Assembly (NCBI GenBank): GCA_000415505.1
Contig: KE354239.1
Location: 1-33,892 of the forward strand
DNA from: Streptomyces afghaniensis 772
Lineage (GTDB): Bacteria; Actinomycetota; Actinomycetes; Streptomycetales; Streptomycetaceae
Reading direction: 5' to 3'
Length of the DNA: 33,892 nt
Shown here: piece by piece, positions 26,225 through 33,320 of the stretch
Numbering within the stretch: the first letter of the stretch is position 1
Layout of the letters: the number at the start of each line of letters is the position of its first letter
Notes under the pieces: model-generated
Databases searched by the model: none
What the model saw: only the letters and a program-made list of their open reading frames with translations
Told to the model about the DNA's origin: nothing
Program-made: the position numbers and the translations under genes

Positions 26225-28054
26225 TTACGGGCGGAAGCGCAGGACCTGCGGGTCGTGGTCGCTGATCTGGTCGTTGAACTCCGCGTTGACGTGCACGCTG
26301 TCGTACGCGAAGTCGCAGTCGCGGCGGATCGACGGGCTGATCAGGATCTGGTCGAGGACCTGGCTGTTGCCCTGGTAGACGTACGAGTAACGCTCGCTCC
26401 TGGGCAGCGACTTGATCGCCGACCAGAGTTCGCCGCGGCCTTCGAGGAGCTTGGTGGTGCCGGAGAACTCGAAGTCGTTGATGTCGCCCAGGGCGATGAC
26501 GTCCGCGTTCTTCTGGGTGTCGAGGATGTCCTTGACGAAGGCGTTCACCAGCGTGGCCTGCCGGTGGCGCTGGGTCTCGGAGCTGCGGGCCGGCGGCTGG
26601 TACTGGGAGGTCAGGCCCTGGTCGCCGCCCTTGGAGTTGAAGTGGTTGGCGATCACGAAGACCGTGCGGCCGCGGAAGGCGAACTCGCCGGCCAGCGGCT
26701 TGCGGCTGTTCTTCCAGGCCTCGTCGGCGGGCGCGATGCGGCCGGGGCTGAGCGTCAGGTGCGCCTTGCCGTGGATCTTCGTCACGCCGGTCGCCGTCGT
26801 GGCGTCGCCGCCCGCGCGGTCAGTGAAGGAGACCCGCTCCGGGTTGAAGAGGAAGGCCTGGCGGATGTTGCCGCCGGGCTCGCCGCCGTCCGTGTTGTCG
26901 GCCGGGTCGATCGAGCGCCAGTCGTACCTCGGGCCGCCGGCCGCGACGATCGCGTCGATCAGCTTGGTCATGGTCTGGTCGGCGGCGACCGTACCGTCGT
27001 TCTTCGCGCCGTTGTTGTCCTGGATCTCCTCCAGGGACACGATGTCCGGCGACTTGAGGTTGTTCACGATCGCGGAGGCGTGCTCGGCGAAGGTGTCGTC
27101 CGTCGGGTCGAGGTTCTCGACGTTGTAGGTGGCGACCGCGAGTTCCGAGGAGCGCTGCTTGCGCGTCGTCTCGCGCTTCAGGCCCGCGGACTCGAGGGTG
27201 CCGAGTTCGCTCGCGACCAGGGTGTAGCCGCCGAACTGGTTGTAGTCCAGCGGGCCCGCCGTCGTGCCGGTGAGCGTGTCGCCGACGTTCGCCTTCGGGA
27301 AGTCCGCCGTCGAGCCGAGGGACTGGATCTGGAGCCGGCCGGTGTTCTGGGCGTCGTAGGAGCCGTAGACCGTGCCGCCGTGGCGGTTGCGGTTCTCGTG
27401 CGGCTTCACCGTCACCCAGAGTTCGCTGTGCGGGTCGGTGGCGCCGACGACACGGGTGTCGGTGACGCGGACGGTCATGCCCTCCAGGGCCTCGTAGTGG
27501 TCCAGGGCGTACTTCGAGGGCTTGAGTGGCAGGGCGTTGATCGAGCCGTTCGCCGTGGTGTCGCCGGCCGGCGCGTAGGCGGCGGGGACCGACCTGGCGT
27601 CGATCGTCGTGGCGGCCGGGAGCTGGTTGCCGCTGGAGACGACCGTGGTCGTCGGCTTGGTGATCTCCGTCAGGGACTGGTTGCCGGAGGCGGTGCCGCC
27701 GGGGACGTACTCCGAGACCGTGCCGCTGACCGTGACGGAGTCGCCGACGGCGACCCCCTTCGGCGTCGAGCTGGTGAAGACGAAGACGCCCTCACTGGTC
27801 GCCGGGTCGGCGTCCGGGTCCGGGTCCTGGATCCAGAAGCCGCGGGACGAGCCGTAGGTCCGGATGCCGGTGACGATTCCGGTCACATCGGTGACCTGCT
27901 TGCCGGCGTACGGGGATATCCGGGTGCTGCCCTGGATGTCGTGGATGCGGACCGAGTCCGCGTGGGCAGGGGTGGTGAGGACGATCGTGGATGCCGCGGA
28001 GCACACGGCGGCGACGGTGAGCGCGGCGAGGCGCGCGGACGACTTGCTCGGCAA
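26225..28054 (-). CDS. Secreted endonuclease/exonuclease/phosphatase (EEP) family protein, ExeM/NucH-like
   Basis: 609 residues. Sec signal peptide 1-32 (AHA|DS). The N-terminal half (about 36-300) contains an OB-fold-like domain (DVTGIVTGIRTYGSSRGFWIQDPDPDADPATSEGVFVF) as in extracellular nucleases. The EEP domain (about 303-609) has all its motifs: TYNVENL (about 308), LEEIQDN (about 339), NHFNSKGGDQ, GDINDFEFS (about 520), DQILIS and the C-terminal SDHDP (about 596). It should cleave extracellular DNA/RNA or phosphoesters with divalent metal. The TTG start (28054) has GGAGG eight bases before it. Most likely supplies phosphate or nucleosides from nucleic acids. Confidence 0.9.
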   Translation of the reverse strand: MPSKSSARLAALTVAAVCSAASTIVLTTPAHADSVRIHDIQGSTRISPYAGKQVTDVTGIVTGIRTYGSSRGFWIQDPDPDADPATSEGVFVFTSSTPKGVAVGDSVTVSGTVSEYVPGGTASGNQSLTEITKPTTTVVSSGNQLPAATTIDARSVPAAYAPAGDTTANGSINALPLKPSKYALDHYEALEGMTVRVTDTRVVGATDPHSELWVTVKPHENRNRHGGTVYGSYDAQNTGRLQIQSLGSTADFPKANVGDTLTGTTAGPLDYNQFGGYTLVASELGTLESAGLKRETTRKQRSSELAVATYNVENLDPTDDTFAEHASAIVNNLKSPDIVSLEEIQDNNGAKNDGTVAADQTMTKLIDAIVAAGGPRYDWRSIDPADNTDGGEPGGNIRQAFLFNPERVSFTDRAGGDATTATGVTKIHGKAHLTLSPGRIAPADEAWKNSRKPLAGEFAFRGRTVFVIANHFNSKGGDQGLTSQYQPPARSSETQRHRQATLVNAFVKDILDTQKNADVIALGDINDFEFSGTTKLLEGRGELWSAIKSLPRSERYSYVYQGNSQVLDQILISPSIRRDCDFAYDSVHVNAEFNDQISDHDPQVLRFRP

Positions 28055-29932: not shown

Positions 29933-31375
29933 ATGTCGCTCACCCGCAGGGACTTCGCCAGAACCTCCGCGATCACCGGTGCCGGTGTCGCGCTGGCGGG
30001 CAGTGTCGGCGCCCTCGCCACCGCGCCGAATGCCCTCGCCTCCTACGACACCGACAGTGCGCAGGGCGCGGCGGACGCACGGCACGGTGTCGGCTACGGC
30101 CCGCTCGTGCCGGACCCCGAGGGGATCCTCGCCCTGCCCGCGGGCTTCACGTACCGCATCATCACCCACAGCGGAAAGACCAAGCTGGAGTCCGGTGAGT
30201 TCACGCCGTCCAACCACGACGGCACCGCCACCTTCGACGGCCCCCGCGGTACCACCCTGCTCGTCAACAACCACGAGCTGAAGGGCCCGCGCGCCAACTG
30301 GAAGTACCCCGTTCCGCTCACCGAGGGCCTCGTCTACGACCCGGCCGCCGCCGGCGGCTGCACGGTCGTCGAGATACGCCCCGACGGACGGGTCGCCGAG
30401 TGGGTGGGCATTGCGGGCACCTCCACCAACTGCGCCGGTGGAAGTACGCCGTGGGGCACCTGGCTCACCTGCGAGGAAAACTCCGACAAGGCCGGCGTCA
30501 ACGGCATGACCAAGGACCACGGTTACGTCTTCGAGGTCGACCCGTGCGACCGGCGCGCCAACCGCGGCCCCAAGCCGCTGAAGTTCTTCGGCCGCTACGA
30601 CCACGAGGCCGTCGTCATCGACCCCAGGCGCGGCCACGCCTACCTCACCGAGGACGCCGCCGGCCCCAACGGCCTCTTCTACCGCTGGACCCCGCCCAAG
30701 GGATTCGCGTACGGCCCCGGGAAGTTCCGCGAGCTCGCCGACGACGCCGGTGTCCTCCAGGCGCCCAAGTGCTTCGACTCGGGCGGGAAGTTCGTCGACG
30801 ACCTGTCCCGCGCCACGAAGATCGGCACCGTCTACGGCGTCGACTGGGTGGACGTACCCGACCGCGACGCCCGTACGACCCCCGTGCGCAAGCAGTTCGC
30901 CGCCGACGAGGTCACCCGCGCCCGCAAGCTGGAGGGCATGTGGTGGGGCGACGGGGGCGCCTACATCGTCTCCTCGTACGCCCGCGAGGAGAGCCCCGGC
31001 CGGCACGACGGCCAGGTCTGGTTCTACGACCCCAAGCGCCGGACGCTGACGTTGAAGGTCCTGCTCGGTGTGAACCCCGACCCCTCGAAGGACGGCGCGT
31101 TCGACGGCCCCGACAACATCACCGTCTCCCCGTACGGCGCCATCGTCCTGGCCGAGGACGGCGAGGGCGTCTCGCACCTCTTCGGCGCCACCGAGAGCGG
31201 CCGCACGTACCCGATCGCCCGCAACGACCTGAACGTCGGCACCGAAGAGGAGCCGGAGTACAGCGAATTCGCCGGTGTCACCTTCTCGCCCGACGGCAAG
31301 ACCCTTTACGCCAACATCCAGGACCCGGGCATCCTGCTCGCCATCACCGGCCCCTGGAAGCGGCAGAAGCGGTAA
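29933..31375 (+). CDS. PhoX-family alkaline phosphatase (Tat-exported)
   Basis: 480 residues. Twin-arginine signal SLTRRDFART with a hydrophobic segment and cleavage at ALA|SY (37/38). The DUF839/PhoX five-bladed propeller shows its expected segments: NNHEL, GTWLTCEEN, FFGRYDHEAVVIDP, YLTEDA, LEGMWWGDGGAYIVSS, PDNITVSPYGAIVLAEDGEG and FAGVTFSPDGKTLYANIQDPG. PhoX enzymes use a Ca/Fe cluster; E/D and C residues fit (CEEN, TED, DNI, AED). Exported folded through Tat, as expected for a metalloenzyme loaded in the cytosol. ATG 29933 follows AGGAG; the PHO box upstream supports phosphate control. Confidence 0.92.
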   Translation: MSLTRRDFARTSAITGAGVALAGSVGALATAPNALASYDTDSAQGAADARHGVGYGPLVPDPEGILALPAGFTYRIITHSGKTKLESGEFTPSNHDGTATFDGPRGTTLLVNNHELKGPRANWKYPVPLTEGLVYDPAAAGGCTVVEIRPDGRVAEWVGIAGTSTNCAGGSTPWGTWLTCEENSDKAGVNGMTKDHGYVFEVDPCDRRANRGPKPLKFFGRYDHEAVVIDPRRGHAYLTEDAAGPNGLFYRWTPPKGFAYGPGKFRELADDAGVLQAPKCFDSGGKFVDDLSRATKIGTVYGVDWVDVPDRDARTTPVRKQFAADEVTRARKLEGMWWGDGGAYIVSSYAREESPGRHDGQVWFYDPKRRTLTLKVLLGVNPDPSKDGAFDGPDNITVSPYGAIVLAEDGEGVSHLFGATESGRTYPIARNDLNVGTEEEPEYSEFAGVTFSPDGKTLYANIQDPGILLAITGPWKRQKR

Positions 31376-31433
31376 TTAATTCACTCGCAGGTCCCGCACT
31401 GCGCCTCCTACAGTGAGATCACAACGTCACGCA

Positions 31434-31506
31434 CCTCCCGGTGCGATGGCAGCGGCTACTTCTCTTCCAAAGAATCCGACGCCGCCGCCGACTTGATCTC
31501 GGGAGG
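31434..31506 (+). ncRNA. Y-RNA-like unit 1, without tRNA-like module
   Basis: Ends pair as CCTCCCG (31434-31440) with CGGGAGG (31500-31506). Inside, GCGGC (31452-31456) pairs with GCCGC (31481-31485), and TTCT (31460-31463) with AGAA (31471-31474). Bases 31437-31462 match 31525-31550 of the neighbouring Y-like RNA at 22 of 26 positions, including CCCGGTGCG and TACTTC, and GAAT follows in both. No T-run follows, so it may be part of a longer transcript with unit 2. A TACAGT at 31409-31414 could be its -10. Confidence 0.55.
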
Positions 31507-31516
31507 CGCAGCATGG

Positions 31517-31669
31517 GGTGGGTGCCCGGTGCGCAGGCAACGGTTACTTCATTTGATCGGAATGTTGCGGGTTCGAATCCCGTCAGCGACTTCGGGTCGC
31601 TGTAGCTCAATCGGCAGAGCATCCGGATAAGTCCGTCGCCGAATTCTGTCCTCGGGCGCCCACCTTTTT
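31517..31669 (+). ncRNA. yrlA: YrlA-type Y RNA upstream of rsr
   Basis: Terminal helix of 12 bp, GGTGGGTGCCCG (31517-31528) with CGGGCGCCCACC (31653-31664), one G-U pair, followed by TTTTT (31665-31669), so the 3' end is well defined. The 5' side then carries GCAAC / GTTGC (31537-31541, 31564-31568) around a TTC/GAA hairpin; alternatively CGGAAT (31558-31563) pairs with ATTCTG (31643-31648). The distal part is a permuted tRNA-like module (separate entry). Location 67 bases before a Ro60-type gene is the usual one for bacterial Y RNAs, which tether Ro to nucleases or gate its ring. All pairings are by hand. The gene symbol refers to the RNA class. Confidence 0.85.
31567..31635 (+). other. Circularly permuted tRNA-like module of the Y RNA
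   Basis: Order: T arm (stem 31568-31571/31579-31582, plus a G-U pair, loop TTCGAAT with canonical T54-T55-C56-A58 pattern); acceptor-like stem CAGCGAC (31584-31590) / GTCGCTG (31596-31602), 7 bp, closed by TTCGG instead of free ends; T-A as positions 8-9; D arm GCTC/GAGC with loop AATCGGCA holding the GG; then a 4-bp hairpin CGGA-TAAG-TCCG (31624-31635) where an anticodon arm would be. No CCA, no 7-base anticodon loop, so it is a mimic and not a tRNA. Confidence 0.85.
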
Positions 31670-31717
31670 CATGCGCGCTTCCCCCGGAAACCTCTCAAGC
31701 ATTCGGGAACCTGTAAA

Positions 31718-31733
31718 GAATTCGGGGGAATTC
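31718..31733 (+). promoter_or_regulatory. Hairpin enclosing the rsr ribosome site
   Basis: GAATTC-GGGG-GAATTC, a perfect 6-bp stem whose loop and base form the GGGGG ribosome site, 3 bases before ATG 31737. CCCCC at 31681-31685 could also pair with the GGGGG. This may dampen rsr translation. Confidence 0.4.
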
Positions 31734-31736
31734 ATC

Positions 31737-33320
31737 ATGGCGCGATTCAACGGCAAGGCGGCGCGGGCACGTCCCGTCTCCCGTGTGACCTCCACCGGGC
31801 GTGTGCTGCGCACCTACGAGGGCGGCCGGGGCCGCGAGCGTGACGCACGCTCCGAGCTCTTCCTGCTGGCCGTGTCCAACTTTGTTTCCCAGCAGACCTT
31901 CTACGAGACCGGCGCCGACCGCGACGACCGCTTCGCGAAGCTCTTGCGCGAACTCGCCGTCACCGACCCTGCGTGGACGGCCGGCCTGCTCGGCTGGCTG
32001 CGCGGCGAGGGCAACCTGCGGACGGCCTCCGTCGTCGGCGCCGCCGAGTACGTCAAGGCCCGCCTGGACGCGGGCGCGACCGGCGGGCCGACGGGCCGGC
32101 AGGTCGTCGCCTCCGTGCTCCAGCGGCCCGACGAGCCCGGCGAACTGCTCGCCTACTGGACGGCGACGTACGGCCGCAATGTGCCCAAGCCGGTCAAGCG
32201 CGGCACCGCCGACGCCGTGCGCCGGCTCTACCACGGCAAGGCGCTGCTGAAGTACGACACCGCCTCCAAGGGCTACCGCTTCGGCGACATCCTCAACCTC
32301 GTGCACGCCGCGCCGGACCCGGACAAGCCCTGGCAGGGCGAGCTGTTCCGGTACGCCCTCGACCGGCGGCACCACCCCGACACCGCGGTGCCGCCCGCGT
32401 CGGACCGCGTCCTCACCGCCCACCGCGAGCTGATGGCGCTGCCGGTGGCCGAGCGGCGCGCGGTCGTGACCGCCGAGGGCGGTGCCGAGCGGCTGGCCGC
32501 GGCCGGGATGACGTGGGAGACGCTGGCGGGCTGGCTCCAGGGGCCGATGGACAAGGCGGCCTGGGAGGCCGTGATTCCGTCCATGGGCGTCATGGCGCTC
32601 GTGCGCAACCTGCGGAACTTCGACGAGGCCGGGGTGTCCGACGAGGTGGCCGAGCGGGTCGCCGCGCGGATCAGCGACCCCGCGGAGGTCGCGCGCTCGC
32701 GGCAGTTCCCCTTCCGGTACCTCGCCGCGTACCAGCACGCGCCGTCGCTGCGCTGGTCGTACGCGCTGGAGCGGGCGCTCGGCCACTCGCTGGCCAACGT
32801 GCCCGCGCTGCCCGGCCGGACCCTGGTGCTCGTGGACCGCTCGGGCTCGATGTTCTGGTCGCGGCTGTCCGACCGCTCGGAGCTCAACCGCGCCGACGCC
32901 GCCGCGATCTTCGGCACGGCGCTCGCGCTGCGGGCGGAGTGCGCTGACCTGGTCGAGTTCGGCTCGACGAGCGACCGCGTGAAGTTCCGCAAGGGCGAGT
33001 CGGTGCTGAAGATCCTCGGCCGCTTCGGCGATCTGGGTGGCACCGACACCACCGAGGCGGTGCGCCGGCACTACCGGAAGCACGACCGGGTGCTGATCGT
33101 CACCGACGAGCAGTACACGCACCACCACCGCGGTGACCCGACCGAGCAGGTCCCGGCCGACGTGCCGGTCTACACCTGGAACCTCGCCGGATACCGGGCG
33201 GGCCACGGCCCGTCGGGAACGGGGAACCGGCACACCTTCGGAGGCCTGACGGACGCGGCCTTCCGGATGGTTCCGCTGATCGAGGCCTCCCGGAACGCCG
33301 ACTGGCCCTGGGCGGCCTGA
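31737..33320 (+). CDS. rsr: Ro60/Rsr orthologue (TROVE plus vWA domains)
   Basis: 527 residues. N-terminal TROVE domain (about 20-355), a HEAT-like ring that in Ro60 holds the ends of misfolded RNAs in its hole and Y RNA on its rim. C-terminal vWA domain (about 362-527) with an intact metal-ion-dependent adhesion site: D367-x-S369-x-S371 (DRSGSM), T436 (GGTDT) and D457 (VTDEQ). Bacterial Ro proteins work with exoribonucleases such as PNPase in rRNA maturation, decay and stress survival. ATG 31737 was chosen over the frame-open ATG 31671 because of GGGGGAA before it and because the extension would overlap the Y RNA 3' end. No RtcB/RtcA genes lie next to it. Confidence 0.95.
   Translation: MARFNGKAARARPVSRVTSTGRVLRTYEGGRGRERDARSELFLLAVSNFVSQQTFYETGADRDDRFAKLLRELAVTDPAWTAGLLGWLRGEGNLRTASVVGAAEYVKARLDAGATGGPTGRQVVASVLQRPDEPGELLAYWTATYGRNVPKPVKRGTADAVRRLYHGKALLKYDTASKGYRFGDILNLVHAAPDPDKPWQGELFRYALDRRHHPDTAVPPASDRVLTAHRELMALPVAERRAVVTAEGGAERLAAAGMTWETLAGWLQGPMDKAAWEAVIPSMGVMALVRNLRNFDEAGVSDEVAERVAARISDPAEVARSRQFPFRYLAAYQHAPSLRWSYALERALGHSLANVPALPGRTLVLVDRSGSMFWSRLSDRSELNRADAAAIFGTALALRAECADLVEFGSTSDRVKFRKGESVLKILGRFGDLGGTDTTEAVRRHYRKHDRVLIVTDEQYTHHHRGDPTEQVPADVPVYTWNLAGYRAGHGPSGTGNRHTFGGLTDAAFRMVPLIEASRNADWPWAA

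What the first reader, a model, noticed from the sequence alone, without database searches (positions are those of the whole stretch)
31517..31669. YrlA-type Y RNA with a circularly permuted tRNA mimic, next to a Ro60/Rsr gene
Seen: a 12-bp closing helix plus T5, and inside it, in reversed order, a canonical T arm, a 7-bp acceptor-like stem closed by TTCGG, U8-A9, a D arm with GG and a mini anticodon-like hairpin. Known: bacterial Y RNAs of the YrlA class carry such a tRNA-like module and lie beside rsr genes. Inferred: this Streptomyces locus makes a Ro ribonucleoprotein whose RNA may be recognised by tRNA-modifying enzymes or tRNA-binding factors. Few Streptomyces Y RNAs have been studied.
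Basis: partly seen in the sequence, partly recalled or inferred. Interest (0 to 1): 0.85.

Follow-up and report, generated by a model that had tools for sequence, protein, structure and literature searches.

The report
Ro-protein RNA carrying inside-out tRNA mimic
Upstream of a Ro60-like gene this Streptomyces encodes a small RNA that holds a tRNA shape in inside-out order, and in related bacteria and phages the same kind of RNA holds copies shaped like other tRNAs, as if the imitated tRNA could be exchanged.

Summary
The finding is real. Window 31517-31669 (+) encodes a YrlA-type Y RNA (Y2), 67 nt before a TROVE/Ro60-like gene (31737-33320). Covariation supports the fold (16 of 41 pairs with double changes), and so does a tRNA tertiary pair: bases 15 and 48 are A-U or G-C in 51 of 53 non-redundant mimics. 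One detail is wrong: the mini anticodon-like hairpin is not conserved; an anticodon stem joins the tRNA module to the Ro stem instead.

A second Y-like RNA without tRNA module lies at 31430-31510. 95 of 141 related loci have a third as well. In 48 of 120 class-assigned Streptomyces Y2 RNAs the D arm is tRNA-Leu-like, 38 with an extended variable region. The two types need 24 changes on the Rsr tree, 11 forced by well-supported branches. Unlinked copies, mixed arrays in other genera and phage copies exist.

YrlA is known. The searches available listed nothing on exchangeable isotype-like permuted mimics, but the core YrlA papers were not readable. Expression, Rsr binding and function are untested.

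The parts
31517..31669 (+). Y2: proximal YrlA-type Y RNA with circularly permuted tRNA module (class I)
   Evidence: covariation; model R1 171.3 bits, E 3.3e-32 (the window sequence is one of the 27 in the model); fold z -4.77
31517..31528 (+). closing helix 5' strand, pairs with 31653-31664
   Evidence: 12 pairs, 5 with double changes
31653..31664 (+). closing helix 3' strand
31665..31669 (+). T5 run, present here but in a minority of orthologues
   Evidence: TTTT in 33 of 124 Y2 tails
31536..31543 (+). inner stem 5' strand (presumed Ro-binding region), pairs with 31633-31640
   Evidence: 88.4% of cells paired, 3 of 8 pairs with double changes
31633..31640 (+). inner stem 3' strand
31557..31561 (+). 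anticodon stem 3' strand (tRNA positions 39-43), pairs with 31622-31626
   Evidence: 4 of 5 pairs with double changes
31622..31626 (+). anticodon stem 5' strand (positions 27-31)
31562..31566 (+). variable region; last base is U48, partner of A15 (31610)
   Evidence: 15-48 covariation
31567..31583 (+). T arm, loop TTCGAAT
31584..31602 (+). acceptor-like 7-bp stem closed by TTCGG (no CCA end)
   Evidence: 7 pairs, 98.9% paired, 3 with double changes
31603..31620 (+). U8-A9 and D arm with GG
   Evidence: 100% of cells paired
31430..31510 (+). Ymid: Y-like RNA with closing helix (31434-31440/31500-31506) and inner stem, no tRNA module
   Evidence: 5 of 16 pairs with double changes; fold z -3.97
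31407..31414 (+). conserved CCTACAGT, -10-like, just upstream of the first element
   Evidence: C[CT]TANA[GCA]T in 98 of 138 loci against about 1% of shuffled windows; promoter not shown, none found by consensus scan
31737..33320 (+). TROVE-domain Ro60-like protein (rsr-like) with DRSGS (MIDAS-like, recalled motif)
   Evidence: Pfam TROVE 53 bits, cut-off 23; NCBIfam Rsr equivalog only 23.2 of 900 bits

Best explanation
Window 31517-31669 encodes a Y RNA of the YrlA type. Its two ends form a stem that should bind the Ro protein. In place of a loop it carries a tRNA core that is circularly permuted: the chain enters at the anticodon loop, runs through anticodon stem, variable region, T arm and acceptor, turns back through a UUCG-like loop instead of a CCA end, then runs through the D arm and anticodon stem back to the Ro stem. 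The module folds into a tRNA-like L that has no end to be charged and no closed anticodon loop. Most likely the RNA sits on the adjacent Ro60-like ring protein and uses the L as a docking surface for tRNA-binding proteins (modifying enzymes, a nuclease such as PNPase, or other tRNA-handling factors), tethering them to the ring or occupying them. It is one slot of an array of two or three Y RNAs in the 5' region of rsr. Across relatives the slot is filled with alternative tRNA types on a fixed frame, so the module behaves as an exchangeable cassette. Shown: conserved fold, tertiary covariation, linkage to rsr, change of module type between relatives. Inferred: transcription, Rsr binding, partner proteins.
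For: Covariation of Y2 class I, 27 sequences: 94.4% of cells paired, 16 pairs with double changes, 0 of 500 shuffles reach any of five measures. Pair 15-48: 51 of 53 non-redundant mimics are A-U or G-C; 10,000 shuffles mean 26.5, maximum 41; viral/phage set 14 of 15, the last one U-A; in class I Y2 both A-U (59) and G-C (11) occur, 2 others. GGUGCG and, 10-20 nt on, UACUUC are nearly invariant in the Y2 and Y1 alignments and mostly so in Ymid. Model R1 at 59 bits or more in 74 of 81 strong-rsr genomes, 1 of 69 others, 0 of the 60 with no rsr match. Literature: Rsr-YrlA-PNPase complex and DusA/TruB modification (PMC8394870, passages).
Against: No transcript or protein-binding data. The window's own module has no clear tRNA parent: D-arm half nearest Asn/Lys, other half His, Arg close behind. 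RF02553 scores tandem tRNA pairs as high as this element. The neighbouring protein is far from NCBI's Rsr equivalog (23.2 of 900 bits). PNPase partnership in Streptomyces is untested.
Confidence: 0.82

Rival explanations
1. Only the tRNA shape matters. The module drifts and is overwritten now and then by recombination with tRNA genes or other Y RNAs, so the isotype resemblance is a by-product without function.
For: The D-arm half and the anticodon/V/T half point to the same amino acid in only 10 of 37 non-redundant mimics; Y1 is Met-like in 23 of 57 distinct 3' halves but in 7 of 57 D-arm halves. Tandem tRNA pairs are ready-made permuted cores.
Against: 10 of 37 is more than chance (shuffled mean 3.5, 1 of 5000 as high). 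In 23 Leu-like RNAs the D arm is almost invariant while the variable arm changes letters and keeps pairing.
Confidence: 0.42
2. The element is only a 5' leader structure that controls rsr translation or mRNA stability, not a separate RNA.
For: Same strand, 67 nt before rsr; T run absent in most relatives (33 of 124 with TTTT); one conserved -10-like block before the whole array.
Against: 17 places with a mimic lie away from the rsr matches; each RNA of the array has its own closed stem; genome G125 keeps a Y2 of 168.8 bits beside rsr remnants.
Confidence: 0.1
3. It is a remnant of tandem tRNA genes or a pseudo-tRNA.
For: RF02553 and R1 also score tandem tRNA pairs (38.7-44.5 and about 51-57 bits).
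Against: No tRNA found in the window; flanking stems covary; R1 gives 171 bits here against 51 for the genome's other hit, at a tRNA-Asn cluster; in 63 loci the finder hits only upstream of rsr.
Confidence: 0.03

Closest known systems
YrlA (Rfam RF02553); Salmonella YrlA structure 6CU1 (named in PMC8394870)
   Same: basal stem plus permuted T arm, acceptor and D arm; the RF02553 consensus carries a generic class I D arm
   Different: Scores 44.1 of 69 bits. In L010 the Leu-like Y2 is not matched by RF02553 at E 10 and Y1 gets 30.4 bits. Array with a module-less RNA, class I and class II mimics in one slot, anticodon-loop sequence kept in Y1, unlinked copies. Whether YrlA papers describe such variety could not be read.
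Deinococcus radiodurans Y RNA / RYPER
   Same: Y RNA linking Rsr to PNPase, as summarised in PMC4726728 and PMC8394870 (passages)
   Different: PNPase role not examined here; this TROVE protein is far from NCBI's Rsr equivalog
Salmonella rsr-yrlBA-rtcBA operon
   Same: two Y RNAs with rsr (PMC7790460, passages)
   Different: here the array lies upstream of rsr, two or three RNAs at most Streptomyces loci and four mimics at one locus of another genus (L164); RtcB was not looked for
Phage TROVE protein with RNA ligase (Streptomyces phage JustBecause)
   Same: Ro-like gene, RNA ligase and tRNA genes close together; TROVE protein with a tRNA-like partner discussed as RNA repair platform in PMC7824862 (passages)
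   Different: the permuted-tRNA Y RNA itself is unannotated in the record

Membership tests
YrlA-type Y RNA | circularly permuted T arm, acceptor and D arm forming a tRNA-like fold | tested here: met
YrlA-type Y RNA | basal stem formed by the two ends, as needed for Ro binding | tested here: met
   pairing and conservation only; binding not tested
YrlA-type Y RNA | genomic association with a Ro60/rsr gene | tested here: met
   74 of 81 against 1 of 69 genomes
YrlA-type Y RNA | stable transcript bound by Rsr | not testable with these tools
   no expression or binding data
Rfam RF02553 (curated cut-off) | score at or above 69 bits | tested here: not met
   44.1 bits; 0 of 150 genus genomes over the cut-off
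Ro60/TROVE protein | TROVE domain | tested here: met
   PF05731 53 bits, cut-off 23, over residues 273-332
NCBIfam RNA-bind_Rsr equivalog | score at or above 900 bits | tested here: not met
   23.2 bits
tRNA gene | canonical tRNA called in place | tested here: not met
   ARAGORN 0 genes in the window
tRNA-Leu-like class II mimic (relatives of Y2, not the window) | long variable arm with Leu-type D arm | tested here: met
   38 of 48 Leu-type modules have an extended variable region, 10 do not; in the 23 aligned all 5 arm pairs show double changes; A15-U48 48 of 48

The most novel reading that the evidence does not exclude
Ro ribonucleoproteins of actinobacteria and their phages carry an exchangeable set of permuted, uncharged tRNA look-alikes, each imitating a tRNA type (Met-like, Arg-like, Leu-like, Glu-like, Ser-like, Gln-like), that act as isotype-directed decoys or sensors for enzymes that cut or modify those tRNAs, in a host-phage contest over tRNA; the modules are swapped in place as the opponents change.
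Probability: 0.25. Interest if true: 0.93.

Novelty: new variant of a known kind. Interest (0 to 1): 0.73.

Why it matters
What bacterial Y RNAs hold on their tRNA-like end is an open question. If one orthologous Y RNA alternates between a class I (in places Arg-like) and a Leu-like class II tRNA core on a nearly unchanged stem, nature has done the domain-swap experiment: comparing proteins bound to the two forms in sister species would show what the module is for. The tertiary covariation is sequence-level evidence for tRNA-like folding of a set of RNAs that Rfam's model scores below its cut-off or, in the Leu-like case tested, does not match. Phage copies close to RNA ligase and tRNA genes tie Ro particles to tRNA handling during infection.

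Tried and rejected
Rfam at gathering score found nothing; at E up to 10 also weak Vault and tRNA-Sec matches, set aside as T-arm resemblance. A consensus promoter scan found no promoter. ARAGORN on re-ordered modules called 248 of 250, but with 75 cut lengths tried for each and tRNA arms required by the finder, and it also called 25 of 250 in the natural order, so I give it no weight. Class labels first mistook three D arms holding TGGCAGA for Leu type; corrected before the counts given. Direction of the class I/II change is not settled: the Rsr tree is a quick one with 46 of 117 inner branches open, and the whole locus may move between species, so 24 changes is no count of inventions. One of 18 fetched unlinked places (L276) had no mimic. 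Plasmid search of 31420-31675: no match. For Y1 loops I first took the ANN anticodons as a separate result; U36 alone makes an anticodon read ANN codons, so only the conservation of U36 and A37 counts.

Rows dropped: Y2 was anchored in 132 entries from 196 rsr loci, identical copies once: 79 class I, 48 class II, 5 other (72, 48 and 4 at Streptomyces-type loci). The tree used 120 (other genera, 'other' types, short and identical Rsr rows left out). Alignments A1-A4 hold 27, 23, 37 and 23 of 33, 31, 40 and 26 picked sequences; I left the rest out by hand, in A2 seven with a short variable region and L030, so its variable-arm result holds for the long-armed ones.

Full report
Observation. The element lies at 31517-31669 on the + strand. 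Folding is far better than shuffled sequence (z -4.77). On 27 class I relatives 41 pairs give 94.4% paired cells and 16 pairs with double changes; no shuffle of 500 reaches any measure, and sliding the partner strand by 1-3 columns drops pairing to 35-51%. The competing anticodon stem has 4 of 5 pairs with double changes. The Y body thus takes the place of a closed anticodon loop.

tRNA tertiary fold. In tRNA, base 15 of the D loop pairs with base 48 before the T stem (Levitt pair; recalled). In the window these are 31610 and 31566. In 53 non-redundant mimics 51 are A-U (26) or G-C (25); shuffles average 26.5 and never exceed 41 in 10,000; the neighbouring bases 44-47 give 2 to 16 of 53. Shuffles ignore kinship. 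All 267 mimics: 263 agree. In 28 viral and phage mimics (15 non-redundant) 14 agree and the last is U-A. Within class I Y2 the pair changes: A-U 59, G-C 11, two others.

Neighbourhood. The next gene encodes a TROVE protein; by sequence it matches two PDB chains named TROVE domain-containing protein. Its genome shows one copy. Of 150 Streptomyces genomes 90 have some rsr match, 81 of them strong (counted by me from the table). Model R1 scores 59 bits or more in 75 genomes (counted): 74 of the 81, one (G125) with rsr remnants, and 0 of the 60 without any rsr match; the Fisher test used these hand counts. The seven strong-rsr genomes without such a hit have rsr genes of 57-71% identity to the window's. 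Background for the model is tandem tRNA-Asn pairs at about 51-57 bits.

The array. Upstream of Y2 a shorter RNA (Ymid, 31430-31510) has a similar frame, a closing helix and no tRNA module. Its inner stem covaries modestly: 5 of 16 pairs with double changes, but further pair types are not above shuffles (406 of 500). Many relatives have a third, Y1, before it, itself supported by covariation (6 of 31 pairs). Of 141 distinct loci: Y1+Ymid+Y2 95, Ymid+Y2 37 (the window's type), Y1+Y2 6, Y2 alone 1, none found 2. The -10-like block that precedes Y1 elsewhere directly precedes Ymid here.

Types of mimic in Y2. At Streptomyces-type loci 72 class I, 48 with a tRNA-Leu-type D arm (GUGGCGGAA-GG-AGACGCG), 4 other. 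One Leu-type D arm (L221) equals that of the genome's own tRNA-Leu(GAG) over 19 of 19 bases. 38 of the 48 have an extended region before the T arm (20-28 nt; class I 14-19), 10 do not. In 23 long-armed ones all 5 arm pairs show double changes. A15-U48 holds in 48 of 48. Some class I Y2 are clearly tRNA-Arg-like (L012: 23 against 13 for the next type; L046 Arg in both halves); the window's own is ambiguous. On the Rsr tree of 120 rows the two types need 24 changes, 11 forced by well-supported branches, against about 38 for shuffled labels: inherited, yet often changed. In the sister pair L021/L072 (97 support) Ymid and the upstream flank are nearly identical while variable region and D arm of Y2 differ; the T arm differs by one base, the acceptor and inner stem by changes that keep pairing.

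Y1. Its anticodon-to-T-arm half is nearest tRNA-Met in 23 of 57 distinct Y1 (Asp 13, Thr 12, Glu 5, others 4), at best 21.5 against 15-15.5; its D-arm half is nearest Arg in 28, Met in 7. It keeps an anticodon-loop-like sequence: in 68 distinct loops (from 132 mimics in frame among 267) U33 is 68, U36 61, A37 55, A38 67 of 68, while 34-35 vary (CAU 19, CUU 14, GAU 11, GUU 9, others 15). U36-A37 is the context of t6A37 (recalled). The rows are related, so this is a pattern, not a probability.

Elsewhere. Some loci of other genera hold two to four mimics with differing D arms, among them Glu-like and Gln-like ones. Of 18 fetched places away from the rsr matches, 17 have a mimic; 11 share a D arm of Glu type (one representative scored, nearest Glu) and two are Ser-like or Ser/Tyr-like. 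Some lie on other contigs of draft genomes. Over all mimics the two halves agree in isotype in 10 of 37 non-redundant cases against 3.5 by chance: real but partial, so many modules are mosaics or ambiguous.

Phages. The search with 31420-31675 hits Streptomyces phages JustBecause and Kela and Gordonia phage Cashline, with no feature annotated under the match. In Cashline the Ro-like gene follows directly; in JustBecause an RNA ligase and then the Ro-like gene follow, with tRNA genes before; Kela was not opened. Of 28 IMG/VR contigs (predicted viral) with a relative of Rsr, 21 show a mimic upstream; four of the other seven have almost no upstream sequence.

Origin. A tandem tRNA pair, read from the anticodon of the first to the anticodon of the second, is already a permuted tRNA closed by the spacer, and Rfam's model scores such pairs like this element. 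The step from there to the Y module is inference.

Mechanism. Shown: fold, linkage, change of type. Inferred: the stem binds the TROVE ring; the L docks tRNA-binding proteins. From literature, YrlA is modified by DusA and TruB and tethers Rsr to PNPase (PMC8394870, passages). Changing isotype-like modules and the phage setting make a decoy or sensor role worth testing; the shape-only view is not excluded.

Novelty. YrlA and its tRNA mimicry are known; yrlA is also predicted in some mycobacteria (PMC9569102, passages). Searches with Y RNA, YrlA, Rsr, Ro60, tRNA mimic, permuted tRNA, Streptomyces, Actinobacteria and phage terms listed nothing on exchangeable isotype-like modules. The listings were capped, titles and abstract starts were seen, only open-licence papers are held, and the key YrlA papers were not held.

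Noticed in passing
31679-31733: A hairpin can pair the GGGGG ribosome site of rsr; 117 of 123 loci have pairing probability 0.8 or more, but 88 of 123 with shuffled upstream do too, so the signal is weak.
   Followed up: partly
L247-L253, L255, L256, L258: Rfam's YrlA model gives sub-threshold hits on tandem tRNA genes (9 Asn places, 1 Ala). It also rings below its cut-off in 6 of 14 control genomes, which were not looked into.
   Followed up: partly
G125 (L254): A Y2 of 168.8 bits beside an rsr of which only fragments match.
   Followed up: no
L161, L163, L164 middle elements: In these loci of other genera the middle Y RNA seems to carry a minimal permuted core without anticodon stem.
   Followed up: no
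L074 upstream of rsr: Repeated copies of the acceptor/D-arm start inside Y2, as if the module were expanding by slippage.
   Followed up: no
L199, L200, L202-L208, L210, L211: More distant TROVE genes in Streptomyces (about 67-74% identity to the window's) with no permuted mimic found upstream.
   Followed up: no
L307 (Streptomyces phage JustBecause) and L308 (Gordonia phage Cashline): Unannotated permuted-tRNA Y RNA close to an annotated Ro-like gene; in JustBecause also RNA ligase and tRNA genes.
   Followed up: partly
window 29933-31375 and 26225-28054: PhoX-type alkaline phosphatase before the array, and a nuclease resembling ExeM/NucH (170.1 bits, cut-off 300) further up.
   Followed up: no
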